Below are positions 4,087-35,639 of a DNA stretch of 35,956 nt, in pieces. Made by a program: the position numbers and the translations under genes. The DNA comes from Gemmatimonadota bacterium (GTDB taxonomy: Bacteria; Gemmatimonadota; Gemmatimonadetes; Gemmatimonadales; GWC2-71-9). The notes under the pieces were generated by a model. The model was given only the letters and a program-made list of their open reading frames with translations. It made no database searches and was not told the DNA's origin. The number at the start of each line of letters is the position of its first letter. Within the stretch, counting starts at the first letter, position 1. The stretch lies in contig JAEUJI010000152.1 in assembly GCA_016794805.1 (NCBI GenBank), positions 1 through 35,956 of the forward strand, given 5' to 3'.

Positions 4087-5550
4087 ATGGCGATCCTTCG
4101 CTGGCTGTCCCGGGCGCCCGCCACGCCCCTGATCCTGCTCAGCAACCGCGAGCCGTATGTCCACCAGCGCGGCCCGGGTGGCGAGGTGCTCGTGTCCCGG
4201 CCCGCCGGCGGCCTGACCAGCGCGCTGCAGCCGGTCATGGCGGCCGCCGGAGGCACCTGGATCGCGTGGGGCCACGGCAGCGCCGATTTCGACGTCACCG
4301 ACATCGGCGACACCATCGGCCTGCCGCCGGAAGCCCCCAGCTATCGCCTCCGCCGCATGCGGCTCAGCGCGGAGGAGGTCGTGGGCTACTACCTCGAGAC
4401 CGCCAACCGCGCCCTCTGGCCCCTGTGCCACGCGCAGTTGCCCCGCTTCGTGTATGACGCGGCCAGCTGGCTCGCCTACCGGCGGGTGAACGAGCGGTTC
4501 GCCGCCGCCGCGATCGCGGAGGCGAAGGGCCGGCCCGCCACCTGCTGGGTGCAGGACTACCACCTGGCGCTGGTGCCGGGCGTCCTGCGCCGGGTGCGGC
4601 ACCTGTTCGTGCACCAGTTCTGGCACATCCCCTGGCCGGCGCCGGACATCCTCCGGGTGCTGCCGAACGCGCGCGCCCTGGTGCGCGGACTCCTGGGCAA
4701 CCATCTCCTCGGGTTCCAGACCGGGCTCGACGTGCGCAACTTCCTCGACAGCGCCCGCCGGATGTTCCGGGACGCGGTGGTGGAGCCCGCCCGGGGCCTG
4801 GTCCGCTACCGCGGCCGCCGCACCCACGTGCGCGAGTTCCCCATCTCCATCGACGTCGCCACCTTCGCCGCCCAGGCCCGAGCCCCAGAGACCGAAGCCC
4901 ACGCCCGTGAGCTCCGCCGCCGCATGGTGCCGGCCGGCGGCCAGCTGCTGCTCGGCGTGGACCGGGTGGACTACACCAAGGGCATCCCGCGCCGCTTCGC
5001 CGCCTTCGCCCGGCTGCTGGCAGAGCACCCCGAGCTGCACGGCCGGGTGACGCTGCTGCAAGTCGGCGTCCCCACCCGCACCGACGTCCCGGAGTACTCC
5101 GCCTTCGAGCAGGAGGTCGCGGACATCGCGGCGGAGGTCAATGCCCGCTTTGGGCGGGACGGCTGGCTCCCGGTGGAGCTGGTGCGGGAGAGCCTCGACC
5201 AGGCCACCCTGACGGCGTACTATCGCGCCGCCGACGTCTGCATCGTCTCGCCGCTGCAGGACGGGATGAACCTGGTGGCCAAGGAGTATGTCGCCTGCCA
5301 GCAGGGCCGGATGGGGATCCTGGTGCTGTCCCGGTTTGCCGGCGCGGCGCGGCAGCTCAAGGAGGCATTGCTCATCAATCCCTACGACGTCGGCGCCACC
5401 GCCGAGGCGCTGTACCGCGCCCTGACCCTGCCCGCGGAGGAGCGGGAGCGGCGCAGCATGGCGCTGCACCACCGGGTGGAGCGTCACACCATCCATGACT
5501 GGATGGGCGATATCTTTGCGGAGGTGGATCGCCTCCGGCCGCGCACGTGA
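4087..5550 (+). CDS. otsA: Trehalose-6-phosphate synthase (GT20)
   Basis: Makes trehalose-6-phosphate from a nucleotide-activated glucose and glucose-6-phosphate, the first step of the OtsAB pathway in the cytoplasm. The 487-residue protein has the GT20 landmarks in order: SNREPY with RPAGGL near the N-terminus, WVQDYHLALVPGVLR, FWHIPWPAPD, LGVDRVDYTKGIPRR for phosphate and sugar-nucleotide binding, and SPLQDGMNLVAKEYVACQ near the C-terminus. Length is normal. It is the first gene of a tightly overlapping operon with otsB and a GH15 enzyme; its promoter must lie in the 117 bp separating it from the divergent amidohydrolase. The Shine-Dalgarno is weak. Confidence 0.96.
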   Translation: MAILRWLSRAPATPLILLSNREPYVHQRGPGGEVLVSRPAGGLTSALQPVMAAAGGTWIAWGHGSADFDVTDIGDTIGLPPEAPSYRLRRMRLSAEEVVGYYLETANRALWPLCHAQLPRFVYDAASWLAYRRVNERFAAAAIAEAKGRPATCWVQDYHLALVPGVLRRVRHLFVHQFWHIPWPAPDILRVLPNARALVRGLLGNHLLGFQTGLDVRNFLDSARRMFRDAVVEPARGLVRYRGRRTHVREFPISIDVATFAAQARAPETEAHARELRRRMVPAGGQLLLGVDRVDYTKGIPRRFAAFARLLAEHPELHGRVTLLQVGVPTRTDVPEYSAFEQEVADIAAEVNARFGRDGWLPVELVRESLDQATLTAYYRAADVCIVSPLQDGMNLVAKEYVACQQGRMGILVLSRFAGAARQLKEALLINPYDVGATAEALYRALTLPAEERERRSMALHHRVERHTIHDWMGDIFAEVDRLRPRT

Positions 5551-6383
5551 GCCATCCCCTCGGGCGGGGGCCGGCGGCGCGGCGGGCGTTCCAGGCCCTG
5601 GTCCGGGCCGAGCGGCCGCTGCTCTTCTTTGACCTCGACGGCACGCTGGCGCCGCTGGGGGAGAATCCCGAGCGCGCGCGCGTTCCCGCCGCCACCCGGC
5701 GCACGATCGCCGCGCTCCGGCGGACCGGAGCCGAGGTGGTCCTGGTCTCGGGCCGTTCGGCCCGGGCCGTGGCCCGCATCAGCGGCACGCCGGTGGACGC
5801 CATTCTCGGCGATCACGGCGCGCGGCTCCTCGAAGGCGGCCGGCTCCAGCCCTGGCTCCCCGCCGACCGGGTCCGGTTGCAGCGGGCGGCACGGGCGGTG
5901 AAACGATTCCTCGCCGGCCGGCGCGGGATCTGGCTGGAGCGCAAGGACCGGTCCCTGGCCATCCACCTCCGGCTGCCGGGGGGGCATGGTCACCGGACGG
6001 TGGGAGAGGTCGCCGCGCTCCTCCGCCGGATGGGGCTCCGGGTGCTGCATGGCAACCGGGTGCTGGACGCCCAGCTCCCGGGGGTGAACAAGGGCGCCGC
6101 GGTGCGCCGATGGCTCCGGCGCGGAAGGAAGGATGCCGTGCTCTACGCCGGCGACGACACCACCGACCAGGACGCCTTCCGCGCGCTCACGCCGGGAGCG
6201 GTGACCATCGCCATCGGTCGCCGGGTGCCCGGGGCCGCCTTCGCTACCCGGAACCCCGCCACCTTCGCCGCCTGGCTCAGCCGCCTCGCCCGGGCGCGCG
6301 CCGCCGCCGTACGGGCGGGCCTTGTGCCCGCCCGTGCCGGCTTGGGCGCGCGCCGGGCCCCCCGGCGAGGGGCTGAAGGATGA
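5547..6383 (+). CDS. otsB: Trehalose-6-phosphate phosphatase (HAD superfamily)
   Basis: Dephosphorylates trehalose-6-phosphate to trehalose. The 278-residue protein has HAD motif I FFDLDGTLAPL (nucleophile Asp29, acid/base Asp31), motif II VLVSGRS, the Lys region VNKGAAVRRWLR, and motif IV YAGDDTTDQDAF. The start is GTG in a GTGA overlap with the otsA stop, so translation is coupled. The C-terminal ~30 residues after the HAD fold are Arg/Ala-rich and probably disordered. The stop overlaps the next start (ATGA). Confidence 0.95.
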   Translation: MSHPLGRGPAARRAFQALVRAERPLLFFDLDGTLAPLGENPERARVPAATRRTIAALRRTGAEVVLVSGRSARAVARISGTPVDAILGDHGARLLEGGRLQPWLPADRVRLQRAARAVKRFLAGRRGIWLERKDRSLAIHLRLPGGHGHRTVGEVAALLRRMGLRVLHGNRVLDAQLPGVNKGAAVRRWLRRGRKDAVLYAGDDTTDQDAFRALTPGAVTIAIGRRVPGAAFATRNPATFAAWLSRLARARAAAVRAGLVPARAGLGARRAPRRGAEG

Positions 6384-8164
6384 CCGACCAACCCACCATC
6401 TCCGACTACGGCCTCATCGGCGACATGCAGAGCGCCGCGCTGGTGGGCCGGCATGGGGGGATCGACTGGTGCTGCCTGCCCCGGTTCGACAGCGGCAGCG
6501 TCTTCGCCGCGCTGCTCGACCCCCAGCGCGGCGGGACCTGGCTGATCCAGCCCGCCGAGCCGTACGCCGCCGTCCAGCGCTACCTCACCGGCACCAACAT
6601 CCTGGAGACCACCTTTCGCACCGCGACCGCCGAGGCGGTCCTGACCGACTTCATGCCGGTCACCGCCGAGGGGCGCCCCGCGGGGAATCACCGGGAGATC
6701 CACCGCCGGGTGCACGGGCTCCGGGGGGAGATGCCGATGCGGGTGCGCTTCATGCCCCGGTTCGAGTACGGGGCGCGCAGCACCCGCCTCGAGGCGATCG
6801 GCGAAGGACTCTTTGCCAGCGATCGTACCGAGCAGGTCCTGACCCTGGCCAGCGCCCGGCCGTTCGAGTGGCGCATCGAGCAGGGGGCGGCGGAGACCGG
6901 CTTCACCCTTCCGGCCGGCGACACCCGCTGGCTGGTGCTGCGTCACGATGACGACGACGTCCACCCGGTGGACCGCTACGAGAGCCAGCGGAAGCTCGAG
7001 GAAACCACCGCCTTCTGGCTGCGCTGGAGCTCGAAGGTCCGGTATGCCGGCCCCTGGCGCGACGCGGTGGAGCGGTCGGCGCTCACCCTCAAGCTGCTCA
7101 CCGACTGCGAGACCGGCGCGGTCATCGCCGCCCCGACGACCTCCCTGCCCGAGACCCTCGGAGGCATCCGGAATTGGGACTATCGCTTCGTCTGGCTGCG
7201 CGACGCGGTGTTCACCCTCACCGCGCTGCAGAGTGTGGGGCACGGCGCCGAGGCCGACGCCTTCATGCGCTTCCTCCGCCGGGTCTGCCGGAACGAGGGG
7301 GGCGGCCACCTGCAGATCATGTACACGGTGAACGGGCGGCGGGACCTGGAGGAGCGGCAACTGGAACACCTGAGCGGCTACCGCGGCAGCCGCCCGGTGC
7401 GGGTGGGGAATGGGGCGGTGGACCAGCTGCAGCTCGATGTCTACGGTGAGGTGCTCGCCGCCGCGGACGCCTGGCGCCGGGAGCACCCGATGAGCGAGGG
7501 GGTCTGGCGCACCCTGCGGCCGCTGGTGGACTGGGTGAGCCATCACTGGGACCGCCCCGACTCCAGCATCTGGGAGGTCCGCGGCGAGACCCGGCACTAC
7601 GTCTTCAGCAAGGTGATGAACTGGGTGGCGCTCGATCGCGGCATCCGGATCGCCACCGACCTCTCACTGCCGGCGGACCTCCCCGCCTGGACCGCGGCCC
7701 GCGACGCCGTCCGGGCCGAGATCCTCGAGCGCGGCTGGAACCCGGCCCGCGGGGCGTTCATCCAGGCCTACGACCATCCCGACACGCTCGATGCGGCGGC
7801 GCTGACCATCCCCATGATGGGCTTCCTGCCCTGGGACGACCCGCGCGTGATCTCCACCGTGCGGGCCATCCAGCGCGACCTCACCACCCCCGACGGCGAA
7901 CTGGTCTTCCGCTACCTCACCCCCGACGGCCTCGACGGCGAGGAGGGGGCGTTCTCCATCTGCACCTTCTGGCTGGCGGAGGCCCTCTGCCGGATCGGGG
8001 ACCGGCCGCAGGCCGAGCGGATCTTCCACCGCATGCTCGGCTACGCCAACCATCTCGGCCTCTACTCCGAGGAGATCGATCCCCTGTCCGGCGAATTTCT
8101 CGGCAACTTCCCCCAGGCATTCACCCACATCGGCCTGATCCAGTGCGCGGTGGCGCTGGGATGA
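6380..8164 (+). CDS. GH15 family glucoamylase/trehalase-like hydrolase
   Basis: A 594-residue cytoplasmic (no signal peptide) glycoside hydrolase of family 15. The N-terminus has ISDYGLIGDMQSAALVGRHG and GIDWCCLPRFDSGSVFAALL, a beta-sandwich follows, and the (alpha/alpha)6 barrel carries IRNWDYRFVWLRDAVFTL, GAFSICTFWLAEAL and EEIDPLSGEFLGNFPQAFTH, all classic for bacterial GH15 enzymes. Known members of this subgroup are glucoamylases or alpha,alpha-trehalases. Placement in an ATGA-overlapping operon behind otsA and otsB favours trehalose or a closely related glucoside as substrate, so the same transcript may encode both synthesis and breakdown. That assignment is inference. Confidence 0.92.
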   Translation: MTDQPTISDYGLIGDMQSAALVGRHGGIDWCCLPRFDSGSVFAALLDPQRGGTWLIQPAEPYAAVQRYLTGTNILETTFRTATAEAVLTDFMPVTAEGRPAGNHREIHRRVHGLRGEMPMRVRFMPRFEYGARSTRLEAIGEGLFASDRTEQVLTLASARPFEWRIEQGAAETGFTLPAGDTRWLVLRHDDDDVHPVDRYESQRKLEETTAFWLRWSSKVRYAGPWRDAVERSALTLKLLTDCETGAVIAAPTTSLPETLGGIRNWDYRFVWLRDAVFTLTALQSVGHGAEADAFMRFLRRVCRNEGGGHLQIMYTVNGRRDLEERQLEHLSGYRGSRPVRVGNGAVDQLQLDVYGEVLAAADAWRREHPMSEGVWRTLRPLVDWVSHHWDRPDSSIWEVRGETRHYVFSKVMNWVALDRGIRIATDLSLPADLPAWTAARDAVRAEILERGWNPARGAFIQAYDHPDTLDAAALTIPMMGFLPWDDPRVISTVRAIQRDLTTPDGELVFRYLTPDGLDGEEGAFSICTFWLAEALCRIGDRPQAERIFHRMLGYANHLGLYSEEIDPLSGEFLGNFPQAFTHIGLIQCAVALG

Positions 8165-23919: not shown

Positions 23920-24635
23920 GTGAACTGTGGGATCGGCTGCTGATCGGCTGGGGCGAGCTGGCGGAGGTGCTGCCCTCGCTGCTCGCCGCGGCGCTCATCA
24001 TGCTGGCCGGCTATTTCGTCGCCCGGCAGCTGCAGCGCTGGACCGACCGCACCCTCGAACGGCTGCACTTCAAGCGCCTCGCCGACGCCGGCGGCTTCAC
24101 CGAGGCGGCCGGCCGGGTCCGGATGGACCCGGTGCGCGCCATCGGCAAGCTGATCTTCTGGCTGACGATGCTGGTCGTGGTGCTGCTGGCGAGCTCCGCC
24201 CTCGGCCTCGAGAACGTGCGCGAGATGTTCGGCCGGATGCTCGGCTTCCTCCCCACGCTCATCTCGGCCACGGTGGTCATCATCCTCGGCATGATCGTGG
24301 GCGAGTTCGTGCGGGCGCTGATCGTGGCGTCGGCCGGCGCGGTGGAAGGGGTGCCCACCGTGGCCAAGCTCACCAAGGGCGCCATGGTGATGATCGCCTT
24401 CTTCATGGCGCTGCAGCTGGTCGGTGTGAGCGAGGAGCTGGTCACCTCGGCCTTCACCCTGGTGGTGGGCTCCATCGCGCTCGCCGCGGGCCTGGCCTTC
24501 GGGCTCGGCAACCGGGACCTGGCCGGCGAGATCACCCGCCGCTGGTACGAGGAGGGACGCCGCCGCAACCGCCGCAAGACCGATCCGCCGGACACCCCCG
24601 CCCCCGAGGAAGAGGGAGGGGGCGGCGCTACTTGA
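23916..24635 (+). CDS. MscS-like / CmpX-type membrane channel protein
   Basis: A 239-residue integral membrane protein with about five helices. LLAAALIMLAGYFVARQLQ is followed by RWTDRTLERL, then IFWLTMLVVVLLASSALGL, TLISATVVIILGMIVGEFV, MVMIAFFMALQLVGV and SIALAAGLAFGLGNRDLAGE. The last helix and its GLGNRDLAGE end are typical of the conserved TM-helix repeat in CmpX/MscS relatives. There is no large cytoplasmic vestibule domain, and the tail is basic then acidic. It is coupled to the dehydrogenase (ATGA, with GAGGTG upstream). The stop overlaps the end of the convergent propeller gene by 8 bp. Confidence 0.83.
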   Translation: MSELWDRLLIGWGELAEVLPSLLAAALIMLAGYFVARQLQRWTDRTLERLHFKRLADAGGFTEAAGRVRMDPVRAIGKLIFWLTMLVVVLLASSALGLENVREMFGRMLGFLPTLISATVVIILGMIVGEFVRALIVASAGAVEGVPTVAKLTKGAMVMIAFFMALQLVGVSEELVTSAFTLVVGSIALAAGLAFGLGNRDLAGEITRRWYEEGRRRNRRKTDPPDTPAPEEEGGGGAT

Positions 24636-25737
24636 CGGTGTACCGCCCCACCCGCTGCCCGTCGGCGTCCCGCAGGATCACGTACACCCGGCCCTCCGCC
24701 CCGAAGCCGGCCAGCGTGCTCGACTTGGGCAGCTGCACCGTCCGGACCTGCTTCCCGCTCCGGTCCACCACATCCCACACCGGCACCGAGTCGCCGTAGG
24801 GCCGCGCCTGCTGCAGCCACACGAAGCCGGCGGGATCGGTCTGCCCCGCGATGAAGGGCGGTTTCTCATCGGCGAACGGGTAGCTCAGCTCGATCCCCGC
24901 CGGCGCGCCCATCTGGGCCATCTGCGCCCGCAGTCGCTCGAGGAAGGCATCCTTCTCCTCCTGGGTGACGGGCACCGGCGTGAAGCTGCGTGACGGGCCG
25001 CGGGTCCACTCCCCCGAGGGCGAGCGCCAGTCCACCGCGTTGTTCGAGGCGCGCGCCGCCCAGAGCGACCCGTCCGGCAGCACGCCGAAGAGGTCGCGGC
25101 CGGAGAAGATCGTGGAGACGATCTTCATCTGTTCCCCGAACTGCCCCCGGCCCCACACCGGGAGCTTGAGCCGCGCTACCGTGTCGGCGATCGTGTCGGT
25201 GAAGCTCACCCGCAGTACGTTGAGGCTGTCGAAGCCGATCTCCTGGCCCGGCTCGAGCCCTCCCAGCACCGAGCGGATGTCTTCCTTATACCCGTGGCCG
25301 GCGTGGTCGTAGTAGAGCGGCTGGTTGTAGCCCCCCACCCCGCGTCCCGGCACCACACCCACGTAGGATCCGGCGGCGCTCCACATCGTGGTCCGCTCGG
25401 CCGCAAAGTCCACCAGTCCGATCGTATCCCCCGCGAAGCGCAGCACGTAGCCCGGGAGCTTGTGCTTGCCGGGCGCCGGGTCGGTGGGGAGGATGGTGTC
25501 GGCGTGCTCGCCGAGGGGAGTGAACTCCCCGGAGAAATCCGCCAGCAGCAGGGTCTTGTCCTTGAGTTCCGCCAGCGCCACCCGGCCATCGGAGAGCTCC
25601 ACCACGTTGCTCACCTGCTGGAAGGTGCGGGGCAGGGTGGACTCGGGCTGGTCGAGGACCACGATCGGGACGGGTGGCTCAGCGCACCCCGCCAGCAGCA
25701 GCGAGAGCGCGAACGGACGGAAGCGCCGGACCATCAT
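24628..25737 (-). CDS. Exported six-bladed beta-propeller lipoprotein (paralog 1)
   Basis: A 369-residue lipoprotein (PFALSLLLAGC, Cys18; ATG 25734 is an almost equal alternative start). The mature protein is a WD/NHL-like propeller with VVELSDGRVALAELKDKTLL, RFAGDTIGLVDFAAERTTM, FGVLPDGSLWAARASNNAVD and TDPAGFVWLQQARPYGD. It shares the DGSLWxARxxxNxVDWR signature with the next gene, so the two are paralogs. No catalytic motif is visible; a binding or scaffolding role in the envelope is inferred. It is second in a two-gene operon with a 29-bp gap. Confidence 0.8.
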   Translation of the reverse strand: MMVRRFRPFALSLLLAGCAEPPVPIVVLDQPESTLPRTFQQVSNVVELSDGRVALAELKDKTLLLADFSGEFTPLGEHADTILPTDPAPGKHKLPGYVLRFAGDTIGLVDFAAERTTMWSAAGSYVGVVPGRGVGGYNQPLYYDHAGHGYKEDIRSVLGGLEPGQEIGFDSLNVLRVSFTDTIADTVARLKLPVWGRGQFGEQMKIVSTIFSGRDLFGVLPDGSLWAARASNNAVDWRSPSGEWTRGPSRSFTPVPVTQEEKDAFLERLRAQMAQMGAPAGIELSYPFADEKPPFIAGQTDPAGFVWLQQARPYGDSVPVWDVVDRSGKQVRTVQLPKSSTLAGFGAEGRVYVILRDADGQRVGRYTVK

Positions 25738-25766
25738 CGGGTGAACTCCAGGGGAGGGGCGGAAGC

Positions 25767-26855
25767 CTAGTCGAGGCCGACGGGTGGCGGCGGGGGGAGG
25801 CGGAAGCGGAGCAGCCGCACCCCCGCCTCGAACGGTTCGGCCACGAGGGCGTCCGTGGCGCTGAGTGCGATGATGTGTCCCAGGCCGGCGTGGCTCACTT
25901 CGCGGCGCAGCATGCCACCCTGATCCACCACCTGGTACGTCCGGAGGGTATCTCCCACCGCCCGGCTCTTCACCAGCCAGAGCATGCCGGCGGCATCCGG
26001 GATGGCGCCCTCGAACGGCGGTTTGATCGCCGCGAACGGCACCTGGGCAACGGAGGGGCGGAGCCCCGCATCGAACCGGCTGAGGAAGAGGTCCCGGTCA
26101 TTCTCGGTCACCGGCAGCACCCGGTCGGGGAGCTGGGGTCCGGCACGAATCGCCCCGAGGGTGTCGCGCCAGTCCACCCGATTCTCCGCCACTCGCGCCA
26201 CCCACAGGCTCCCGTCAGGCAGGATGCCCCACCGGTCCTGTCCCGAGAGGAGCCGCCGCTCCATCCGCCGCCGCCCCTGGCTGATCACTTCCGCCAGGTC
26301 GAGGGGCGCGAGCCGGGCCACGGTGTCGGTGGCGCTCCGGAGATCGGTGCGCAGCACTACGGCGGAATCCAGGTTTCCCCGCCCGTCCCGCCCCGGCGCC
26401 GGCCAGATTTCGAAGTACCAGCGGCCGCCGGCGTCACGCGCGCGGGGGAGTGCGCCGCGGTAGGCGTCCACGGCGGGGAGTGCGCCGCCGAGCCTGCCGT
26501 CCAGCGACCAGGCGGTCTGCCGCCGCCGCTGCCAGTCGGCGATGTAGATCGAGTCGCCGGCGCGGAAGAGGTGGAACGGCTGCTCCAGCTCCCGGCCGCG
26601 CGGGCCGCCGAGCGGGGTGATGCGGTGGGTCCCGAAGTCCGCCACCCCGACGGTGCGATCCTGCGGCGAGACCAGCGCCCACCGGTCGCCGCCGAGCCAG
26701 GCGGCGGCCGCCACCTCCCCCTCATACGGCGCGACGATCGTGTCCGCCGCCGGCGGGAGCAGCGCTGTGGGAGGCGCGGTCTCCGGCCCGGAGCAGGCGA
26801 CGATGGCGGCCAGCAGCAGCGGCGGCGGGGCAAGCCGATGGAGGGGACGGGGCAT
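25767..26855 (-). CDS. Exported beta-propeller lipoprotein (paralog 2)
   Basis: A 362-residue lipoprotein (LAPPPLLLAAIVAC, Cys21). Propeller blades include RAGDSIYIADWQRRRQTAW, WGILPDGSLWVARVAENRVD and AAGMLWLVKSRAVGDTLRTY. It is close to the neighbouring 24628-25737 gene in blade order and motifs, including the VTENDRDLFLSRF helix that matches VTQEEKDAFLERL there. It is divergent from the related 26996-28147 gene across 140 bp. Function unknown. Confidence 0.8.
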   Translation of the reverse strand: MPRPLHRLAPPPLLLAAIVACSGPETAPPTALLPPAADTIVAPYEGEVAAAAWLGGDRWALVSPQDRTVGVADFGTHRITPLGGPRGRELEQPFHLFRAGDSIYIADWQRRRQTAWSLDGRLGGALPAVDAYRGALPRARDAGGRWYFEIWPAPGRDGRGNLDSAVVLRTDLRSATDTVARLAPLDLAEVISQGRRRMERRLLSGQDRWGILPDGSLWVARVAENRVDWRDTLGAIRAGPQLPDRVLPVTENDRDLFLSRFDAGLRPSVAQVPFAAIKPPFEGAIPDAAGMLWLVKSRAVGDTLRTYQVVDQGGMLRREVSHAGLGHIIALSATDALVAEPFEAGVRLLRFRLPPPPPVGLD

Positions 26856-26995
26856 GGGGCGGGAAATGTAATGCGCGGCGGTCGGGCCGGGATGGTACGG
26901 GGAGCTGCGACCCCGGTCAGGGGCCGGGCATCTTCCCGGGCATTCGGACGCTGCCCAGGTTCCCGGCGTTTCTCCCCAGGTGGAGGTTTCTCCGC

Positions 26996-28147
26996 GTGCG
27001 CTTCCTCGTCTGTCTGAGTCTCGTGATGCCGCTGGCGCTCTCCGCCCAGCAGCCGCCCAGCCGGGTTCTGGCCAAGCCGGACGCCGAGTTCGCGGAATCG
27101 TTCGACCAGGTCCTCGCGGTGAGCGAGCTTCCGTCAGGCAAGGTCCTCGTCACCGACCTCGGCCCCAAGGCGGTACTCCTCGCCGACTTCGCCAGCGGCA
27201 CCCAGACGAATGTGGGCCGGAACGGCCAGGGCCCCGGCGAATACCAGTTCCCGGGCGAGTTGCTGCCCTATCGCGGGGACTCGGTGCTGCTGGTGGACCG
27301 GGTCAGCCGCCGCTTCCTGCTCATCTCCCCCGACGGCAAGCTGGGTCGCACCATTCCATTCCCCGACGGCATCGGGGGCCTGCCCGAGCCGCGCGGCGCC
27401 GACCGGCAGGGCCGGCTCTACTTCCAGGCCAGCCCCTTCCGCGGCAGCCCGGGGAGCGGCATGGAGATCAGCGAGAACCTGCCGGACACCGTCCCCGTCA
27501 TCCGCTTCGATCCAGCCACGAAGAAGGTGGACACCATCACCCGGGTGAAGATCCCCGCGGTCAAGGTCCAGACCTCCGGCACCCAGAACAGCCGAATGGT
27601 GATGATGCGCTCCCAGCCCTTCGCCGCGGCGGACGACTGGGTGGTGACGCCGGAGGGGCGGGTGGCGGTGGCCCGCACCGGCGACTACCGGGTGGAGTGG
27701 TACGGCGGCGCGGCGCCGGTGCGTGGCGCGCCGGTGCGCTACGACCGGCTCAAGATCGCGGATGCCGACAAGAAGGTGTTCATGGCTGCCATGCGGAACA
27801 CCCGCAATCGCATCACGGTGACCGACGGTGGCTCCGGGCCGAGCGGCGGCGGCACGCCCCCGCGTCCTCCCGAGCCCGCCGCCGGCGATTTCGACTGGCC
27901 GGAGTATTTCCCCCCGTTCCCGGCCCGGTCGCTCCGGCTCGCCCCCGAGGGCCAGCTCTGGCTGCCCCGCTCCACCTCGGCCCGGGACTCGACGCCGGTG
28001 TACGACCTCTTCGATGCGAGCGGCAGGCACACCGGCCGCGTCACCCTGCCGCTGGGGCGCCGCCTTGTGGGCCTCGGGAAGGGCGTGCTCTACGCCACCC
28101 GCACTGACGAGGACGGCCTGCAGTGGCTGGAGCGGTACCGGCGGTAG
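26996..28147 (+). CDS. Secreted six-bladed beta-propeller protein (paralog 3)
   Basis: A 383-residue exported protein (signal peptide LVCLSLVMPLALSAQ). The propeller has VSELPSGKVLVTDLGPKAVL, GRNGQGPGEYQFPGELLPY, GDSVLLVDRVSRRFLLISP and LAPEGQLWLPRSTSARDS. GRNGQGPGE is the same motif that marks the B propellers downstream. VEWYGG and KKVFMAAM match the VDWR and DLFLSRF segments of the two minus-strand paralogs. The start is GTG with TGGAGG nine bases upstream. It converges on the first HTH gene with a 23-bp gap. Function unknown. Confidence 0.82.
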   Translation: MRFLVCLSLVMPLALSAQQPPSRVLAKPDAEFAESFDQVLAVSELPSGKVLVTDLGPKAVLLADFASGTQTNVGRNGQGPGEYQFPGELLPYRGDSVLLVDRVSRRFLLISPDGKLGRTIPFPDGIGGLPEPRGADRQGRLYFQASPFRGSPGSGMEISENLPDTVPVIRFDPATKKVDTITRVKIPAVKVQTSGTQNSRMVMMRSQPFAAADDWVVTPEGRVAVARTGDYRVEWYGGAAPVRGAPVRYDRLKIADADKKVFMAAMRNTRNRITVTDGGSGPSGGGTPPRPPEPAAGDFDWPEYFPPFPARSLRLAPEGQLWLPRSTSARDSTPVYDLFDASGRHTGRVTLPLGRRLVGLGKGVLYATRTDEDGLQWLERYRR

Positions 28148-28170
28148 CGGGCGTTCCCGCCGTGCCCGTC

Positions 28171-28935
28171 TCACCCTGACCCGACCGCCGCCCGGCCCGG
28201 ACCTCCGCGCCGGGCTTCTCCCGCCAGCACCTCCGGCATGCGGCGGGAGGGTTGCCGCCCCAGGCAGCCACTCCGCCGCAGAGCCGACTCCAGCAGCCAT
28301 TCCCACCCAGCGCGTCGGCTGACCTCCGTCCAGCGGAGGTCGGTCGCGAGGCGGAGCCAGCGCCGGAGGGTTCGCGGGTCCAGCCCCGCGAGATAGGCTT
28401 GCGCCTCGAGGGTGAGGCCGTGCCCCACCCCTGCCACGATCCGGGCCAGCTCCGCCAGACCCCGCCAGTCCCGCACTTCCAATGGCCCCAGCGCCCGCAG
28501 CCGGCGCGATAGGGTCCGGCCGGCGCGTGCGCCGCGGCCCGCGTGGAGACAGTCGAGCAGAAGGCCTCCGGCCGGGGAGAGCCCCAGCCGCAGTTCCACC
28601 CAGCGGGCGATGCTGGTGTCCGAAGGTACCGGGCGGTGGCGGACCGCTGCGATCACCCGCTGTTCAGGGGTGAGGTGGGCGAGGTCTCCGGGATAGAGGA
28701 AGGCCCAGGTGCCGGGCACCGGCTCGAATTCGGTCAGGGTACGGACGGGGATCCGGCGATCGGGGAGCCGGAACACCAGGGGCGCCCAGGGGGAGATCGC
28801 GTGGGCGCTGAGGGCGCGGGCCAGCGCCGGGATGCCGTCGGTCAGGTCGGCGGACAGCAGGGTCCCCAGCCCCAGGCAGAAGGGGCCGGCCGGCGTGAAG
28901 GCGGCGAACGGTGGTTCCAGGGCGAGCAGGGTCAC
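28171..28935 (-). CDS. HTH-type regulator of cassette 1 (receiver-like N-terminus)
   Basis: A 254-residue soluble protein. Residues ~1-125 form an alpha/beta domain with no clear phosphoacceptor Asp (degenerate receiver-like, tentative). The C-terminal third has SRRLRALGPLEVRDW, then LDPRTLRRWLRLATDL and RRAGWEWLLESALRRSG, resembling an AraC-type helix-turn-helix unit. The same segments appear in the 31888-32670 protein (NRRLAAFGPLRCREW, DPRTFRGW, GWEWKLEAMLRRFG), so they are paralogs. The GTG at 28935 is inferred from GGAGGA upstream; an in-frame upstream extension is possible. It is divergent from propeller A, so it probably controls that cassette. Confidence 0.7.
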   Translation of the reverse strand: MTLLALEPPFAAFTPAGPFCLGLGTLLSADLTDGIPALARALSAHAISPWAPLVFRLPDRRIPVRTLTEFEPVPGTWAFLYPGDLAHLTPEQRVIAAVRHRPVPSDTSIARWVELRLGLSPAGGLLLDCLHAGRGARAGRTLSRRLRALGPLEVRDWRGLAELARIVAGVGHGLTLEAQAYLAGLDPRTLRRWLRLATDLRWTEVSRRAGWEWLLESALRRSGCLGRQPSRRMPEVLAGEARRGGPGRAAVGSG

Positions 28936-28949
28936 ATGGCATCGGTCCT

Positions 28950-28970
28950 CCTCCCGCGCGGGGCGGGAGG
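28950..28970 (-). promoter_or_regulatory. Hairpin overlapping the HTH1 ribosome binding site
   Basis: CCTCCCG-N7-CGGGAGG is a perfect seven-base inverted repeat. In the HTH1 transcript its 3' arm includes GGAGG, the start of the gene's Shine-Dalgarno sequence, so the stem could mask translation initiation. It lies between the shared 12-mer and the GTG start. Confidence 0.4.
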
Positions 28971-28972
28971 GC

Positions 28973-28984
28973 GTGCAGGGGGTT
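28973..28984 (-). promoter_or_regulatory. Shared 12-mer upstream of HTH1
   Basis: AACCCCCTGCAC (minus strand) lies 37 bp upstream of the HTH1 start. The identical 12-mer lies 18 bp upstream of the HTH2 start (32689-32700). The equivalent placement in both divergent regions makes it a candidate operator or promoter part. Confidence 0.4.
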
Positions 28985-29053
28985 GAGAGAGTAGCTCCGC
29001 CGCAGCCCCGGCGCACCGGTGCCGGTCAGCCCCCTCCAGGACACGAACCGGCC

Positions 29054-30079
29054 ATGAGTGGCGCGATCCTGTCTGGAGTGCGGTGCCCTCCAGCCGTAGC
29101 GTGCGGGGTGCAGACCCGACCTCAGCGTCGTCCTCGCCGCCATCGTGCCGCCGCCACCGTCCTTCTGGTGGTATCGGTTGCGTTGGCCACCCGCCCCCTG
29201 GCCGCGCAGCGCTGCGGGCCGGAGGCGCTCCGCCTGGAGCAGCTGGCGGTACAGCCGCTGCCGCCGCACTTCGGCATTGATGGGGCGCTTTCGCTGGCGG
29301 ACGGGGGCTACGCCCTATGGTCGGCGGAGAGCGCCCTCCTCTTTATGTACCCGGATGGACTCCGGGAGCGGCGCGTCCTGCCGCCGCTGCTCCATCCCGT
29401 CGGCCTCGCCGCCGACCCGGATGGTTACCGCTTCCTCGATCGCGCCACCGGGGTCGAGTACCGGCTCGGGGCCGACAGCGTCCCGGAGCGGATCGGCGCC
29501 GTGCCGCTCGCGCCGGGAGAGGAACTCGACGCCGCCCGCTGGCGCGACGGCGGCTGGACCATCGGCCTCCGCGACACCCGCGCCCGGCGGTTCCTGGTGC
29601 GGCGGGTGGACGGGGCCGGGGTCACCACGCTGTTCGCCTCCGCCGCGGCAGACTCAGTCCTTCTCATCCCCCGCTATCACCTGAGCGAGACCGGGTCCGC
29701 CTTGCTGCTCACCCGGCTCACGGCGCCGTTCGAGGTGCTGCGGCTGACGGCTGCGACGGGAACGGTGGATACCCTCGCGGTCCCGTTCGGCGACGCGGCG
29801 CTCCGCCTGGCGCTGCCGGACACGGTGGCGCAGTGGCGTGCCCTCCCCGCCGTGGCCCTCGATTGCGGCTGGGTCCTCACCCTGAGCGACCTCCAGAGCG
29901 ACCGGCGGCTGCTGCTGCGGTACGACGCCGCGGGCGGGCTCGCCAAGGTAACGCCGCTCGATGCCCCCTTCGGGGTCATGGCCGGCCGGCCGGCGGAGGG
30001 CACGCTGCTCGCGGCCCGGCGGGCCGGGGAGCTGGAGCTGGTCTGGTATCAGTGGCGCTGGGTCCGGCAGGACCAATGA
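29054..30079 (+). CDS. Cassette 1 propeller A, exported
   Basis: An exported protein of 341 residues from ATG 29054; the hydrophobic signal is ATVLLVVSVALATRPLAAQ. Downstream GTG starts (29078, 29108) would give a more normal signal length, so the start is uncertain. The mature part is propeller-like (YALWSAESALLFMYPDG, HPVGLAADPDGYRFLDRATG, CGWVLTLSDLQSDRRLLLRY) and ends WYQWRWVRQDQ. WSAES, the SDxxSDRR blade and the W(Y/E)xWxWV end recur in the 33015-33938 protein. No enzyme motif is visible. It is the first gene of a three-gene plus-strand unit with the Cys-rich protein 29 bp downstream. Confidence 0.72.
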   Translation: MSGAILSGVRCPPAVACGVQTRPQRRPRRHRAAATVLLVVSVALATRPLAAQRCGPEALRLEQLAVQPLPPHFGIDGALSLADGGYALWSAESALLFMYPDGLRERRVLPPLLHPVGLAADPDGYRFLDRATGVEYRLGADSVPERIGAVPLAPGEELDAARWRDGGWTIGLRDTRARRFLVRRVDGAGVTTLFASAAADSVLLIPRYHLSETGSALLLTRLTAPFEVLRLTAATGTVDTLAVPFGDAALRLALPDTVAQWRALPAVALDCGWVLTLSDLQSDRRLLLRYDAAGGLAKVTPLDAPFGVMAGRPAEGTLLAARRAGELELVWYQWRWVRQDQ

Positions 30080-30108
30080 CATCCCGCACGAGGAAAGGAT
30101 TCGATCCG

Positions 30109-30567
30109 ATGAAACAGATGACACGCACCGGCGCGGCCCTGGCCGCCCTGCTGCTCACGCTTGCCGTCATGCCCGCGCGGGCGCAGGTCACCGCCTCCCT
30201 GGCGGCCGTGACCGGCATGGCCGGCGCCACCACGCTGGAGAAGACGCCCGGCTGCTGGGGCTGCGCCTATCCCTCGACCGGCGGGGTGTGCGTCGGGGGC
30301 TTCGTGCCCGGCTACTGGAACTGCACCCAGGTCTTCGGAAACTCCTGTTCCGTGAGCAGCCCCGGCTGCGGCGCGGGCGCCAGCCTGCCGCTCGATCCTG
30401 ACGGCGCCACGCAGTATGTCTCCCGCGGGCGGGTGCTCGGGATTGAGGCCGGGCTGACGATCGAGTCGCCTGAATTCCGGAACTGTGAGGGCGCCATCGT
30501 TGCGCGGCGTCAGGCGCCTGACCAGATTGCAGCCGTCCGGGACCGGACGGCGACCCTGACGCTCTGA
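30109..30567 (+). CDS. Cassette 1 small secreted Cys-rich protein
   Basis: A 152-residue exported protein (signal peptide GAALAALLLTLAVMPARAQ). The mature part holds seven cysteines at 49, 52, 61, 72, 80, 87 and 126: GCWGCAYPSTGGVC, VGGFVPGYWNC, NSCSVSSPGC, FRNCEGAI. The same CWxC, CVxGFxxGxxNC and late single Cys occur in the 33955-34398 protein with the same order and nearly the same spacing (3, 9, 11, 8, 7, 39 against 3, 13, 11, 7, 8, 44). Disulfides or a metal site are possible; the odd number leaves one cysteine free for a partner. The ATG follows GAGGAAAGG at slightly long spacing. Family not recognised. Confidence 0.8.
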   Translation: MKQMTRTGAALAALLLTLAVMPARAQVTASLAAVTGMAGATTLEKTPGCWGCAYPSTGGVCVGGFVPGYWNCTQVFGNSCSVSSPGCGAGASLPLDPDGATQYVSRGRVLGIEAGLTIESPEFRNCEGAIVARRQAPDQIAAVRDRTATLTL

Positions 30568-30589
30568 ACCCCGTCCCGGACTGGTTGCC

Positions 30590-31774
30590 ATGCGTGCCAT
30601 GACATCTGCCGGCCTGGTGCTGCTGCTTGCGGCGGCGCCGGCCGCGCTCCCACCCGGGTTGCCGTCCCGGGCGGACCTCGCTCCCGATCCCGCCTTCGTG
30701 CTGCCCGACAGCCTCCTGGCCCAGCTGACGCTGGTCACCGACCTGGCGCTCGACCCGGACGGCTCCCTGTACCTGGTGGACCGGAACCTCCCGGCCGTGC
30801 TGCACCTGGAGCGGAGCGGGGCGCTGCGCCGCATCATCGGCCGCCGGGGCGGCGGGCCGGGGGAGTTCAGCTACATCTACCAGGTGGGCGTCACCCGCGA
30901 CTCGCTCTGGGCGGTGGATCCCGGCCTGCGCCGGATCACCATCTTTCCGACCAGCGGCCGGGGGCAGCTGACCATCCCCTTCGGCTCCTCGCGGAACGAT
31001 GCCGCCAGCGCGGTGCGCGAGCCGGTCCGGCGCGGCATCCCCGCCGTGATGCTCGCCGATGGCGGCTTCCTGGTGGAAGACGCCCTCGGCATGGAATCCA
31101 CCGGCGGCGTGCCCACCAGCATCGCGGTGCTCCGCACCGACCGGGACTTCGTCCTCCGGGACACGGTGACCGTGCTGCCTTTCGACCACAGCCCGCTCCG
31201 GTTCGTCTATCGCAATGGCGAGTCACACTTCATGCAGCCGTTCAGCGACGACCCGACCATCGGCTACGCCTCGGACGGGTCGCTGATCGTCCGGGTCAAC
31301 CGTACTGCGGCGCGCGGAGCGGTGGAGAGCTACTTCACCGTCACCGCCTGGCGCGGCAACGGGGACCCGCTCTGGCAGCGGGAGGTGGCCTACCGGCCAG
31401 CCCGGATCACCCGCGCCATGGTGGACAGCGTGGCGGAGCTGCTGGGCGGAATCCAGGACCCGCAGATGCCGGCGCGCCCGGTGACGCCGGATTCGATCCG
31501 GGCCCGGCTGTACCGCCCGCCGATGCTGCCGCCGGTGGAGCAGGTGGTGGTGGGGCGGGACCAGAGCGTCTGGCTCAAGGTGCGGTTCGGCGATTCGCCG
31601 GTGGGGCGCGCCGAGTGGCTGCTGCTCTCGCCCCGCGGGTTCCCGCTCCGGCGGGTGAGCACCGACGCGCGGTTCCGGCTGCTGGAGGCGGAGCGGACGA
31701 TGCTCTGGGGGGTGGAGGGGGATCCGGAGGAGATTCCGCGGGTGGTGCGGTACCGGACGCCGCTGAGCAGTTAG
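30590..31774 (+). CDS. Cassette 1 propeller B, exported six-bladed type
   Basis: A 394-residue exported protein (signal peptide SAGLVLLLAAAPAALPPG). Blades include LALDPDGSLYLVDRNLPAVL, RRIIGRRGGGPGEFSYIYQV, RDSLWAVDPGLRRITIF and VVVGRDQSVWLKVRFGD. GRRGGGPGE and DSLWAxDxxLRRIxxF are shared with the cassette 2 protein at 34395-35639, and GRxGxGPGE also with 26996-28147. It starts 22 bp after the Cys-rich gene. Propellers of this type bind ligands or partners in the envelope; the exact role is unknown. Confidence 0.78.
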   Translation: MRAMTSAGLVLLLAAAPAALPPGLPSRADLAPDPAFVLPDSLLAQLTLVTDLALDPDGSLYLVDRNLPAVLHLERSGALRRIIGRRGGGPGEFSYIYQVGVTRDSLWAVDPGLRRITIFPTSGRGQLTIPFGSSRNDAASAVREPVRRGIPAVMLADGGFLVEDALGMESTGGVPTSIAVLRTDRDFVLRDTVTVLPFDHSPLRFVYRNGESHFMQPFSDDPTIGYASDGSLIVRVNRTAARGAVESYFTVTAWRGNGDPLWQREVAYRPARITRAMVDSVAELLGGIQDPQMPARPVTPDSIRARLYRPPMLPPVEQVVVGRDQSVWLKVRFGDSPVGRAEWLLLSPRGFPLRRVSTDARFRLLEAERTMLWGVEGDPEEIPRVVRYRTPLSS

Positions 31775-31801
31775 GCGGGTTAGTCGGGTGAAGGCAGGGC
31801 G

Positions 31802-31831
31802 ACCCCCGTGCCACCAGAGTGGCTCGGGGGT
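31802..31831. terminator. Strong hairpin between convergent cassette genes
   Basis: ACCCCCG-t-GCCAC-caga-GTGGC-t-CGGGGGT makes a 7 + 5 base-pair stem with one T-T mismatch and a four-base loop. It lies 28 bp after propeller B and 57 bp beyond the end of the convergent HTH2 gene, so it can serve both strands. No T tract follows it on the plus strand. Confidence 0.55.
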
Positions 31832-31887
31832 TGCTAGCTAATGCAGGCGTGGTAGGTGCAAATCGGCCGGGCGCGGCTGGGCCCGGC

Positions 31888-32670
<783 letters not shown>

Positions 32671-33014
32671 GGGGGTCCAGGTGGTACGGTGCAGGGGGTT
32701 TTGGCAAGTTAGCGATCCACGGCTCGCGGCGCCATCCGCTCCGCCGAGAGGGCCAGGGTCACCGGAGCGGTTGCGGGGCCTGCCGCGAGGCACTCGCAGG
32801 CAGGCCGACTTCCGGCGTTCGCTAGGGCACGGAGTTGGCATCCCGGAAACCGCGTAGAAATGCGCAGCCTGTGCATTGCGCATCAGCTCACGCGCAGCAA
32901 CTTAGGGCATTAAGGTGTCAATGAGTGGGCCACGAGATCGGGAGCCAGTATCGCTTGCGAAGGGTCGAGCGCGGGCACTGGTTCGAGGCAGCAGCCGACT
33001 TCTGGAGGTCTGAC
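32671..33014. promoter_or_regulatory. Divergent control region between HTH2 and propeller A' genes
   Basis: 344 bp without a confident gene. It contains the shared 12-mer AACCCCCTGCAC (minus, 32689-32700); two TGCGCA palindromes 16 bp apart (32861-32866 and 32877-32882), the first overlapping AATGC-N9-GCATT; and a 30-codon upstream reading frame starting ATGAGTGG at 32921 and ending TGA at 33011-33013, one base before the A' start. GC content falls visibly near 32850. No certain -35/-10 pair is assigned. Confidence 0.5.
32689..32700 (-). promoter_or_regulatory. Shared 12-mer upstream of HTH2
   Basis: AACCCCCTGCAC on the minus strand, identical to 28973-28984 upstream of HTH1, 18 bp before the HTH2 start. 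It is a candidate operator or promoter part of the cassette. Confidence 0.4.
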
Positions 33015-33938
33015 TTGCAGACGGTGTGGAGGCTTGGTTTCTGGCTCGTTGCAGGCCAGCTCGTCTTGGTACCCCATGAGATGCTGGCAACCTCGCAGGC
33101 TAGCCTTCAACTTACAGAGCAGAAGACCCTCTCGCTACCGTGGCGGCCTGCAGGCGCAGCGGTGCTCGAAGGCGTGCTCTTCGTTTGGTCTGCAGAGAGT
33201 CCAGTGGCCTACATTCTTGATGGGGACAGGCTCGACTCGATCGCCAGTCCTTTCCTGCGGCGCCCGCTCGGGGTACGGCCGGTTCACAACGGACGGGCGA
33301 TTGAGATACTTGCCAACGGCGGGGCCTCCAGCGTCACGGTTTCGCGTAGTGGATCTGTTCTCCGCGAGGTACCAACAACAGGCCTTGAGCCACTGTTGCA
33401 GTTCCAGTCAGTGCATGGGACTTCATCCGGATGGGCGGTGCTGGGTCAGGACTCATCTGGGATTGGCAGGCTTTTCCTAGTCCTCCCGGGTGGTCGGGCC
33501 CGCGAAGTTATGAGGAACGAGTTTCAAGGGAAACCGCCGGGGAGGGGGCTGGCCGTCGTCGACGGCCGCCTCCTGGTGCTCGGATGGCCTTCCGCCTTCG
33601 AAGCCGTGTGGGAAACCTACGAGGCGGGGTCACCCCCACTCCAGCTTATCCCGGAGGCTGTGCTTCGAGAGGTTGGCAATCCCGAGCACGACGACGGCCT
33701 ATGGATTCCGCTTGGCGTGGTGCCCCTCGATGTGGGATTCGTGATCACCTTCGCGGACATGAGAAGTGATCGCCGCATCGTCGCGGTCTACGGACCTCAC
33801 CTTGCCTTTCTGCGGGCTTCCCTCATGCGAGGTCAGTTCGCCTTCGTCGCTGGCGATCCCCCGCGCCGTCAGTTATGGGCTGTCCGCGTTCTGGAATCGG
33901 CTGAAATCACAATGTATGAATGGTCATGGGTACCCTGA
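33015..33938 (+). CDS. Cassette 2 propeller A', exported
   Basis: A 307-residue exported protein. The start is TTG 33015, chosen because GGAGG (33004-33008) lies six bases upstream and because it gives a normal signal peptide (MQTVWRLGFWLVAGQLVLV); an in-frame GTG at 32925 would add 30 unlikely residues. The mature part parallels cassette 1 A: VLFVWSAESPVAYILDGD, GFVITFADMRSDRRIVAVY, and the end ITMYEWSWVP. Codon use is less GC-biased than upstream genes. The Cys-rich gene follows 16 bp downstream. Function unknown. Confidence 0.75.
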   Translation: MQTVWRLGFWLVAGQLVLVPHEMLATSQASLQLTEQKTLSLPWRPAGAAVLEGVLFVWSAESPVAYILDGDRLDSIASPFLRRPLGVRPVHNGRAIEILANGGASSVTVSRSGSVLREVPTTGLEPLLQFQSVHGTSSGWAVLGQDSSGIGRLFLVLPGGRAREVMRNEFQGKPPGRGLAVVDGRLLVLGWPSAFEAVWETYEAGSPPLQLIPEAVLREVGNPEHDDGLWIPLGVVPLDVGFVITFADMRSDRRIVAVYGPHLAFLRASLMRGQFAFVAGDPPRRQLWAVRVLESAEITMYEWSWVP

Positions 33939-33954
33939 CGACAAGGAGTCTACC

Positions 33955-34398
33955 ATGAAGCGAATGAGCATCGCTCTACTCGTCCTGTGCTTTGTGAGCG
34001 CGGCGAGGCTTGCCGCCCAAGCCTCACCCCAAGGCCCTGGGAACGGCGGGTTCCCATGCTGGCGTTGCATGTGGGACAACTGGAACTGGCCACCGCAGGA
34101 GTGGTGCGTCTCAGGGTTCGGGTCGGGCGCTCAAAATTGCGTGAGCGGCACCGGCTGGTGCGCGGAGATCAACCCTGATGCTTGCATCTGGACTGGGGCG
34201 CTGAGGACGGACAGCCATCAACTCCTAGCCGACGGCTCGCTTTGGAGCGCGTCGACAACTTGGCGCCTGGATAAAGTGGAGCGGCCCGGTGGTGGCAGGA
34301 CGGAGGTACGCGCTTGCTCGGGGGTCGTACTTGCCGCATTCTACTCCAGTACCGAGGCGGAGCTCCTGCGGCGCGGGCTGCGAGCTGTTCGCTTGTGA
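33955..34398 (+). CDS. Cassette 2 small secreted Cys-rich protein
   Basis: A 147-residue exported protein (signal peptide IALLVLCFVSAARLAAQ). Mature cysteines at 35, 38, 51, 62, 69, 77 and 121 match the cassette 1 protein: PCWRCMWDNWNW, EWCVSGFGSGAQNC, GTGWCAEINPDAC, VRACSGVVLA. It is rich in Trp near the N-terminus. AAGGAG lies seven bases before the ATG, a strong site suggesting high expression. The stop overlaps the GTG of the next gene. The family was not recognised; structural, binding or signalling roles are all open. Confidence 0.8.
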   Translation: MKRMSIALLVLCFVSAARLAAQASPQGPGNGGFPCWRCMWDNWNWPPQEWCVSGFGSGAQNCVSGTGWCAEINPDACIWTGALRTDSHQLLADGSLWSASTTWRLDKVERPGGGRTEVRACSGVVLAAFYSSTEAELLRRGLRAVRL

Positions 34399-35639
34399 CG
34401 CTGCTCCACAAGTGCTTGGCGTCTTGGACCTTGGCGTTCAGTATCCCTCACGTGGTGTTGGTAACGTGGAAGGGTCGTCACGGCTTGCGAACGCTCCAAG
34501 CTACCGCAACGATCTGCGCAGGCCTCATTTTCGCGGCACCAGGCGCGGCGCAGAACAACTTGGTTGCAGAACGTCAATTGCGGCTGCTTCGCAGGCTGGT
34601 GACCGAAGTCGAAGGCGTCCAAGCGACCCGAGTCGCGTTGGCTGAGGACGGTCGCGTTCTCGTTGCGGACCCATCTGCCCCGACGGTGTGGGTATACCCT
34701 TCGGGTCCCGGGGAACCCGTCCGAATAGGCAGGCGGGGGCAGGGCCCAGGGGAACTTGGCTACCCGGGTGCAATTGGCCTCGTCGGCGACAGTTTATGGG
34801 CCGCCGACTTGGCTCTTCGACGAATTTCCGTCTTCCGACTGGACGGATCACTCGTACGGGATGAACCTCTGGGCGCGGTTTCCATCGGCCCAAGGCGATT
34901 GCCGCCCGTGCCGCGTGCGCTCCTTCCTGATGGGCGAATTGTGGCTGTTGTAGAGCCCGCCCTTGGACCCCCCGGAGAATCAGGCGCTCGCGCTGTGGTG
35001 CTGATCCTCTCGCCTAGAGGCGATGTGGTGGCGAATCCTGTGTCGCTATCGCGGGAGCACAGTCTGCTCATCGTCAAGGGCTCTGTCGTACAGGCGGATG
35101 TGCGGATTCCCCAGCCGTTCGACGACTCGGCCCTTTGGGGACTTTCCCGTGGGTCGCAGGGATTGATCGTTGTGGACCGGCAATGGCCGGGTGGTAATCC
35201 AGGGGAAGTCAGGGTCATGCGTGTCAGCTTTGGCGGAGACACCCTCGCCAGTGCGGTTCTACGGTACGAGCCGCTCCCCTTGGGCGGCGACGTGCGGGAT
35301 AGCATGGCGGCGGCCTTGGCCCTTGGCCCCGAGCGGTTCTTTAACGGGCGCGATGACGCTGCGGCGCGGATTCGACCACTCATCTACGTCCCGTCATTCA
35401 GGCCCGCAGTCGTGGGCCTGGTTGTTGGAGCAGATGGGACCGTTCTGCTCCGAGCGGCAGGCGAGAGCCCTCAAGCTGCTCGTTGGGACATTCTGGGCCC
35501 GGATCTCAAACGCGAAGGCTTCGTATGGCTCCGGCCCGACGATGTGGTCGTGCATGCTTCTGGGAGCCAGATCTGGGTCTTCGAGCCTGGGGAGGAACTG
35601 AACTCACTGTGTGCATATCAGCTGACACCTCGAATGTGA
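34395..35639 (+). CDS. Cassette 2 propeller B', exported six-bladed type
   Basis: A protein of 414 residues from a GTG in a GTGA overlap with the Cys-rich gene; a later start near 34458 would place the signal (TICAGLIFAAPGAAQ) closer to the N-terminus and is possible. Blades include ALAEDGRVLVADPSAPTVWV, IGRRGQGPGELGYPGAIGLV, GDSLWAADLALRRISVFRL and VGLVVGADGTVLLRAAGESP. The GRRGxGPGE and DSLWAxDxxLRRIxxF motifs match cassette 1 B. GC is lower than in cassette 1. It is the last gene of the window. Confidence 0.76.
   Translation: MTLLHKCLASWTLAFSIPHVVLVTWKGRHGLRTLQATATICAGLIFAAPGAAQNNLVAERQLRLLRRLVTEVEGVQATRVALAEDGRVLVADPSAPTVWVYPSGPGEPVRIGRRGQGPGELGYPGAIGLVGDSLWAADLALRRISVFRLDGSLVRDEPLGAVSIGPRRLPPVPRALLPDGRIVAVVEPALGPPGESGARAVVLILSPRGDVVANPVSLSREHSLLIVKGSVVQADVRIPQPFDDSALWGLSRGSQGLIVVDRQWPGGNPGEVRVMRVSFGGDTLASAVLRYEPLPLGGDVRDSMAAALALGPERFFNGRDDAAARIRPLIYVPSFRPAVVGLVVGADGTVLLRAAGESPQAARWDILGPDLKREGFVWLRPDDVVVHASGSQIWVFEPGEELNSLCAYQLTPRM

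What the first reader, a model, noticed from the sequence alone, without database searches (positions are those of the whole stretch)
28171..35639. Tandemly repeated four-gene cassette: HTH regulator / propeller A / Cys-rich secreted protein / propeller B
Seen in sequence: the order minus-HTH, plus-A, plus-Cys-rich, plus-B occurs twice back to back (28171-31774 and 31888-35639). Every member matches its counterpart by motif: HTH (GPLxxRxW, DPRTxRxW, GWEWxLExxLRR), A (WSAES, SDRR, W-x-W-V end), Cys-rich (CWxC, CVxGFxxGxxNC), B (GRRGxGPGE, DSLWAxD). All three structural products carry export signals. Inference: a regulated, exported multi-protein system in which two propellers act with a small disulfide-type protein, for example as a surface complex, receptor-ligand set or carrier. 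I know of no described system with this make-up.
Basis: partly seen in the sequence, partly recalled or inferred. Interest (0 to 1): 0.85.

Follow-up and report, generated by a model that had tools for sequence, protein, structure and literature searches.

The report
Exported propeller–cysteine-rich protein operon

Summary
The order H(-), A(+), C(+), B(+) occurs twice at the stated coordinates and every quoted motif is present. H, A and B are significantly similar between copies (E = 2e-12, 6e-11, 4e-17); C is weak pairwise (E = 0.06) but clear once relatives are added. The copies share only 24-39% identity and are not nearest relatives: two diverged cassettes side by side, not a recent duplication.

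Among 395 Gemmatimonadota genomes, A occurs in 30. Of 39 A genes examined, 35 are followed by C and 34 of those by B. A, C and B distances correlate strongly (A-B r = 0.96). Diverged C homologues in loci without intact A also sit beside a B-type propeller in 11 of 12 fetched. H is not part of the module: its homologues elsewhere lie beside unrelated genes.

A models as a propeller with no Pfam match; B is an NHL-type propeller; C (signal peptide, six N-terminal cysteines, conserved C-terminal tail) matches nothing in Pfam, NCBIfam or PDB. Best explanation: an exported complex in which the propellers hold the disulfide-rich subunit C. The module is shown; the complex is inferred; its biological role is open.

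The parts
29054..30079 (+). A1: exported six-bladed propeller, family A, no Pfam match
30109..30567 (+). C1: exported small Cys-rich protein, family C
30590..31774 (+). B1: exported NHL-type propeller (weak DUF5128 match, E=0.0018)
32925..33938 (+). A2: second family A propeller; true start may be near 33017
33955..34398 (+). C2: second family C Cys-rich protein
34452..35639 (+). B2: second NHL-type propeller (ORF open from 34314; GTG near 34452 likely start)
28171..29016 (-). H1: AraC-like regulator, divergent from A1; local neighbour, not a conserved member
31888..32883 (-). H2: AraC-like regulator, divergent from A2; local neighbour, not a conserved member; likely start 32670
24628..28147 (.). 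Three more B-type propellers (24628-25737 -, 25767-26855 -, 26996-28147 +), related to B but with no C beside them; neighbours, not part of the module

Best explanation
A-C-B is a conserved three-gene operon of Gemmatimonadota whose products appear to leave the cytoplasm through signal peptides. SHOWN: the gene order, the C-B adjacency, co-inheritance of A, C and B, the propeller nature of A and B, and the cysteine-rich architecture of C. INFERRED: the three products form a periplasmic or cell-surface complex. C folds through disulfides in its N-terminal part and is held by propeller B (the most constant partner), perhaps through its conserved C-terminal tail; propeller A binds the same small protein or caps the complex. 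Such a complex would serve recognition, adhesion or carriage of an extracellular ligand. Regulators, the CarboxypepD_reg/Plug proteins and the MauE/MauD set are lineage-specific additions.
For: A in 30 of 395 genomes and 14 of 138 genera; A-C-B order in 31 of 39 A genes by profile, 34 of 39 after reading the gaps, with near-constant spacing. Diverged C homologues in loci without intact A are beside B in 11 of 12. Cys-rich exported neighbour upstream of B in 38 of 54 B genes of A-C-B loci against 2 of 57 other B genes. Distances correlate: A-B 0.96, A-C 0.88, C-B 0.90, none of 2000 permutations as high. A is a propeller by model and Foldseek; B matches NHL domains at E=3e-16. C has six conserved N-terminal Cys and a conserved tail with a seventh.
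Against: No interaction evidence; C could not be modelled (pLDDT 45) and complexes could not be predicted. Correlated distances follow from co-inheritance alone and weaken for distant pairs (0.67, 0.42, 0.40). L070 has A-B without C, L042 and L050 have A alone, and L119 has C followed by a CarboxypepD_reg protein without B. Export is judged by eye.
Confidence: 0.5

Rival explanations
1. C is a secreted effector or peptide (for example a bacteriocin-like or signalling protein, or precursor) and the propellers are its handling, export-side or self-protection proteins.
For: C is small, exported, Cys-rich, diverse and multi-copy (up to 8 C matches in one genome). Small Cys-rich precursors next to MauE/MauD homologues have been proposed as RiPP precursors in Streptomyces (PMC7794033), and five A-C-B loci have MauE nearby.
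Against: C is long for a peptide precursor (about 120 mature residues) with a tail conserved to the last residue rather than a conserved leader and variable core; no modification enzyme or peptidase-transporter recurs in the flanks; the host genome has no MauE; no NVEALA or PADLOC match.
Confidence: 0.2
2. C-B is a mau-like periplasmic redox enzyme: small disulfide-rich subunit plus propeller subunit, as in methylamine dehydrogenase light and heavy chains.
For: Analogous layout (small Cys-rich exported subunit beside a propeller). Five A-C-B loci stand next to a set with a DsbD_2-like protein, MauE, a MauD-like thioredoxin and, in four, a Tat-exported Cys-rich protein; that set also occurs alone.
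Against: No Pfam match of C or B to methylamine dehydrogenase chains; no Trp conserved across C, so no basis for a Trp-derived cofactor; the host genome lacks MauE; the mau-like set is present in only a few genomes.
Confidence: 0.12
3. No joint function: propeller paralogues that expanded in Gemmatimonadota happen to be neighbours of small secreted proteins.
For: B-type propellers are abundant in some genomes (1-63 matches), and five lie within 11 kb in this window.
Against: Strict order and spacing across 14 genera, and Cys-rich neighbours are nearly absent at other B genes of the same genomes (2 of 57).
Confidence: 0.07

Closest known systems
NHL / DUF5128-type six-bladed propellers
   Same: B matches NHL domains of known structure (E=3e-16), and some B members reach the DUF5128 family (L056 B, 1.7e-7, above cut-off); A models as a propeller.
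   Different: A has no Pfam match; the fixed order with family C is not part of any family description that I found.
Methylamine dehydrogenase (mau) light and heavy chains with MauE/MauD
   Same: Small disulfide-rich exported subunit next to a propeller; MauE and MauD-like genes beside five of the A-C-B loci.
   Different: No sequence match of C or B to the enzyme chains, no conserved Trp in C, no MauE in the host genome.
NVEALA proteins of Bacteroidota (found next to propeller lipoproteins, from memory, not tested)
   Same: Small exported proteins with cysteines; said from memory to neighbour six-bladed propellers.
   Different: No NVEALA match for any of 27 C proteins at E up to 0.1 nor in the host genome; C lacks the NVEALA motif and is longer.
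LRP6 propellers with the Cys-rich ligand Dkk1
   Same: Fold precedent: LRP6 entries, among them LRP6-Dkk1, are among the structural matches of A.
   Different: Generic fold match among 680 at E <= 0.001; no homology between C and Dkk1; animal receptors.

Membership tests
NHL-type six-bladed propeller (B) | Sequence match to NHL domains of known structure | tested here: met
   Profile of B1, B2 and X1: E=3e-16 to NHL of Thin, 4e-15 to TRIM71
Six-bladed propeller fold (A) | Predicted all-beta propeller with structural matches to propellers | tested here: met
   pLDDT 72, pTM 0.70; PDB matches are propellers, TM 0.5-0.6; confidence moderate
Pfam/NCBIfam family for A or C | Score above a curated cut-off | tested here: not met
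   No family for 22 A members or 27 C members
Methylamine dehydrogenase | Light or heavy chain sequence family | tested here: not met
   No such Pfam match for C or B
Methylamine dehydrogenase | Two conserved Trp in the small subunit (TTQ) | tested here: not met
   No Trp among conserved C columns
NVEALA | PF14055 match | tested here: not met
   Not among Pfam matches of 27 C proteins; none in the host genome, control positive in Bacteroides ihuae
Anti-phage defence system | PADLOC model match | tested here: not met
   0 families for all eight proteins
RiPP cluster | Recurrent modification enzyme next to the precursor | tested here: not met
   No such family recurs in the flanks; MauE/MauD only in five loci
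AraC family (H) | Pfam/PDB match of the DNA-binding part | tested here: inconclusive
   No match; AraC-like by inspection only
Exported A-C-B complex | Physical interaction of A, C and B | not testable with these tools
   No complex prediction available; monomer model of C too poor

The most novel reading that the evidence does not exclude
A-C-B is a new kind of bacterial exported machine in which a family of small disulfide-rich proteins, diversified in several copies per genome, is specifically held by dedicated propeller partners, as a lineage-specific extracellular recognition or signalling system of Gemmatimonadota.
Probability: 0.25. Interest if true: 0.75.

Novelty: new variant of a known kind. 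Interest (0 to 1): 0.5.

Why it matters
Gemmatimonadota are widespread in soil, sediment and sponges but have few cultured members and few understood extracellular systems. A strictly ordered operon of two propellers around a small cysteine-rich protein, with two families (A and C) absent from Pfam and NCBIfam and with up to six A matches per genome in sponge-associated Palauibacter, is a well-defined target: the gene order tells which propeller belongs to which Cys-rich protein, so the pairing can be tested directly by co-expression or complex prediction.

Tried and rejected
Recent tandem duplication: rejected (24-39% identity, not sisters, no DNA repeats, different G+C). Four-gene system with H: rejected as a general unit. 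H and the Palauibacter regulator f0 as one family: not detectable. A and B as detectable paralogues by profile: not supported (probability 1.7%), although both are propellers. Every B-type propeller having a Cys-rich partner: rejected (2 of 57). MauE/MauD as a required part: rejected (no MauE in the host genome). NVEALA, methylamine dehydrogenase and defence-system membership: not met. C structure: the model failed (pLDDT 45) and was not used for a fold search. No match of A1 or the whole region in plasmids. Literature: no paper for NVEALA or for '6-bladed beta-propeller' with 'Gemmatimonad'. Rfam and tRNA scans: nothing. The promoter and terminator scan found no more than shuffles. Whether the families occur outside Gemmatimonadota could not be tested well.

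Full report
CHECK OF THE OBSERVATION. Between copies, H aligns only over its 87-residue DNA-binding part (39%, E=2e-12), A over 268 residues (27%, E=6e-11) and B over 305 (30%, E=4e-17); C is weak (24%, E=0.06). With relatives added, C1 and C2 fall into one profile family. The similarity is real, but the copies are deeply diverged: no DNA repeat joins them, copy 2 is markedly less G+C-rich, and in A and B trees of 26 loci the two copies are not sisters and have no relative closer than about 31% identity. This is two separate cassettes side by side, not a fresh duplication.

WHERE ELSE. A profile of A searched through 395 Gemmatimonadota genomes hits 30 genomes in 14 of 138 genera, with up to six matches in one genome. 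Named matches include Candidatus Palauibacter, a sponge-associated genus, and a Gemmatimonadaceae MAG. Neighbourhoods were fetched for most of these. The order A-C-B is visible in nearly all. Scored strictly, 31 of 39 A genes (the two in the window included) have C and B downstream on the same strand, the C domain mostly 105-190 nt and the B domain about 600-870 nt after the A domain. Four more (L041, L043, L048, L049) carry a Cys-rich exported ORF after A that the profile missed; three of these then have B, and L049 ends at a contig end. Exceptions are L070 (A-B without C), L057 (truncated A behind C-B), L042 and L050 (A alone). Some loci are near-identical copies from related genomes, so the number of independent loci is nearer 25.

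C-B IS THE MOST CONSTANT PAIR. A search for C in the same genomes gives strong matches beside A and B, and weaker ones elsewhere. Twelve loci without intact A were fetched: eleven have a B-type propeller beside C (ten of them downstream, one upstream), and in the twelfth (L184) the contig ends. One further C, in L119, is followed by a CarboxypepD_reg protein and no B. Conversely, B-type propellers are common (1 to 63 matches per genome in eight genomes) and mostly have no Cys-rich exported neighbour: 2 of 57 tested, against 38 of 54 B genes in A-C-B loci, by the same script. Pairwise distances of A, C and B correlate (A-B 0.96, A-C 0.88, C-B 0.90; none of 2000 permutations reached these; 0.67, 0.42 and 0.40 among distant pairs only), as expected for co-inheritance. 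This does not by itself prove contact.

THE PROTEINS. B is an NHL-type propeller: its profile matches Thin and TRIM NHL domains at E=3e-16 and below 1e-13. A has no Pfam match in any of 22 members, but its model is all-beta with propeller topology (pLDDT 72, pTM 0.70), the best structural matches are propellers, and its profile weakly matches the PknD propeller (E=1.8e-5). C has a signal peptide, six well-conserved N-terminal cysteines (CxxC...C...G...C...C...C), a variable middle, and a conserved tail R-x-C-x-G-x-[IV]-V-x-R-x-Y running to the C-terminus. It matches nothing in Pfam, NCBIfam or the PDB, and its model is not usable. Export signals were judged by eye; no predictor was at hand.

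WHAT DOES NOT BELONG. H looks AraC-like by inspection, but its seven homologues in six other genomes lie beside unrelated genes: one beside PqqD, a transglutaminase-like protein and an asparagine synthase (a lasso-peptide-type set), another beside ABC-transporter genes. Palauibacter loci carry a different AraC-like family, f0, before A or behind B, which hhalign does not relate to H. Regulation is therefore local and replaceable. Other optional partners are CarboxypepD_reg/Plug proteins downstream of B in many Palauibacter loci and a mau-like set (DsbD_2-like protein, Tat-exported Cys-rich protein, second B-type propeller, MauE, MauD-like thioredoxin) beside five A-C-B loci, the fifth without the Tat protein and DsbD_2-like gene, which also exists on its own. 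The host genome has no MauE.

HOW IT MOST LIKELY WORKS. The economical reading is that C is a disulfide-stabilised small subunit held by propeller B, with A as a second propeller in the same exported complex. Precedents for a propeller binding a small disulfide-rich protein exist (methylamine dehydrogenase heavy and light chains, established knowledge; LRP6 with Dkk1, which appears among the fold matches of A). Shown: gene order, adjacency, co-inheritance, folds of A and B, cysteine pattern of C. Inferred: the complex, its place outside the cytoplasm, and a recognition, adhesion or carrier role. Rivals are a secreted effector or peptide handled by propellers, and a mau-like enzyme; the second is weakened by the lack of any family match or conserved Trp.

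NOVELTY AND SCORE. No described system with this make-up was found in the family libraries or in the limited paper searches. The component folds are known, the arrangement is not, and the function is unknown; I call it a new variant of the general kind 'propeller plus small exported Cys-rich partner'. Interest 0.5: a clean, testable, recurrent operon, but one of many conserved operons of unknown function, in MAG-rich data, without interaction evidence.

Noticed in passing
L037:678-4097; L039:1103-4475; L062:2-2835; L064:1-2697; L073:11203-12451; also alone in L175, L177 and L178: A mau-like set: DsbD_2-like membrane protein, Tat-exported protein with 12-13 cysteines and an invariant NCWC motif, a B-type propeller, MauE and a MauD-like thioredoxin. 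It resembles methylamine dehydrogenase maturation genes without the enzyme chains.
   Followed up: partly
L058:8081-10521, L065:8018-9427, L053:8356-9672 and about 12 other loci: CarboxypepD_reg proteins, some with a TonB Plug domain but without a receptor barrel, lie downstream of B in most Palauibacter A-C-B loci and may be a further partner.
   Followed up: partly
L067:7416-8456, L053:4520-5560, L065:9636-10619 and others: A regulator family (f0) beside A-C-B loci in Palauibacter, with an N-terminal part resembling a receiver domain and a C-terminal AraC-like part; no Pfam, NCBIfam or PDB match.
   Followed up: partly
L120:6183-9832: An H homologue stands divergent from PqqD, transglutaminase-like and asparagine synthase genes, a lasso-peptide-type biosynthesis set.
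   Followed up: partly
L127, L129, L130, L131, L133 (about 5800-6500 in each): A second type of exported Cys-rich protein (about 160-180 aa, pattern C-[GW]-W-C ... CxxCGG.S.CH ... C) stands next to B-type propellers without A in the genus g77.
   Followed up: partly
window 24628-35639: All five B-type propellers found in this genome lie within this 11-kb stretch, while G195 of another genus has 63 matches.
   Followed up: partly
window 32235-32275: A run of GGTGTC repeats inside H2 encodes a (Asp-Thr)n stretch, a possible length-variable site.
   Followed up: no
L191:4648-5451: The start of an A gene runs in frame into a C protein, followed by B and a CarboxypepD_reg protein: apparently a deletion that removed most of A, or an assembly error.
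   Followed up: no
L006:7168-7536: A remnant of A (C-terminal part only) in G095 with no C or B beside it; that genome has a second A at a contig start (L050), also without C or B.
   Followed up: partly
window 4087-8164: Ordinary trehalose/glucan genes: glycosyltransferase 20 (OtsA-like), trehalose-phosphatase, glycoside hydrolase 15.
   Followed up: no
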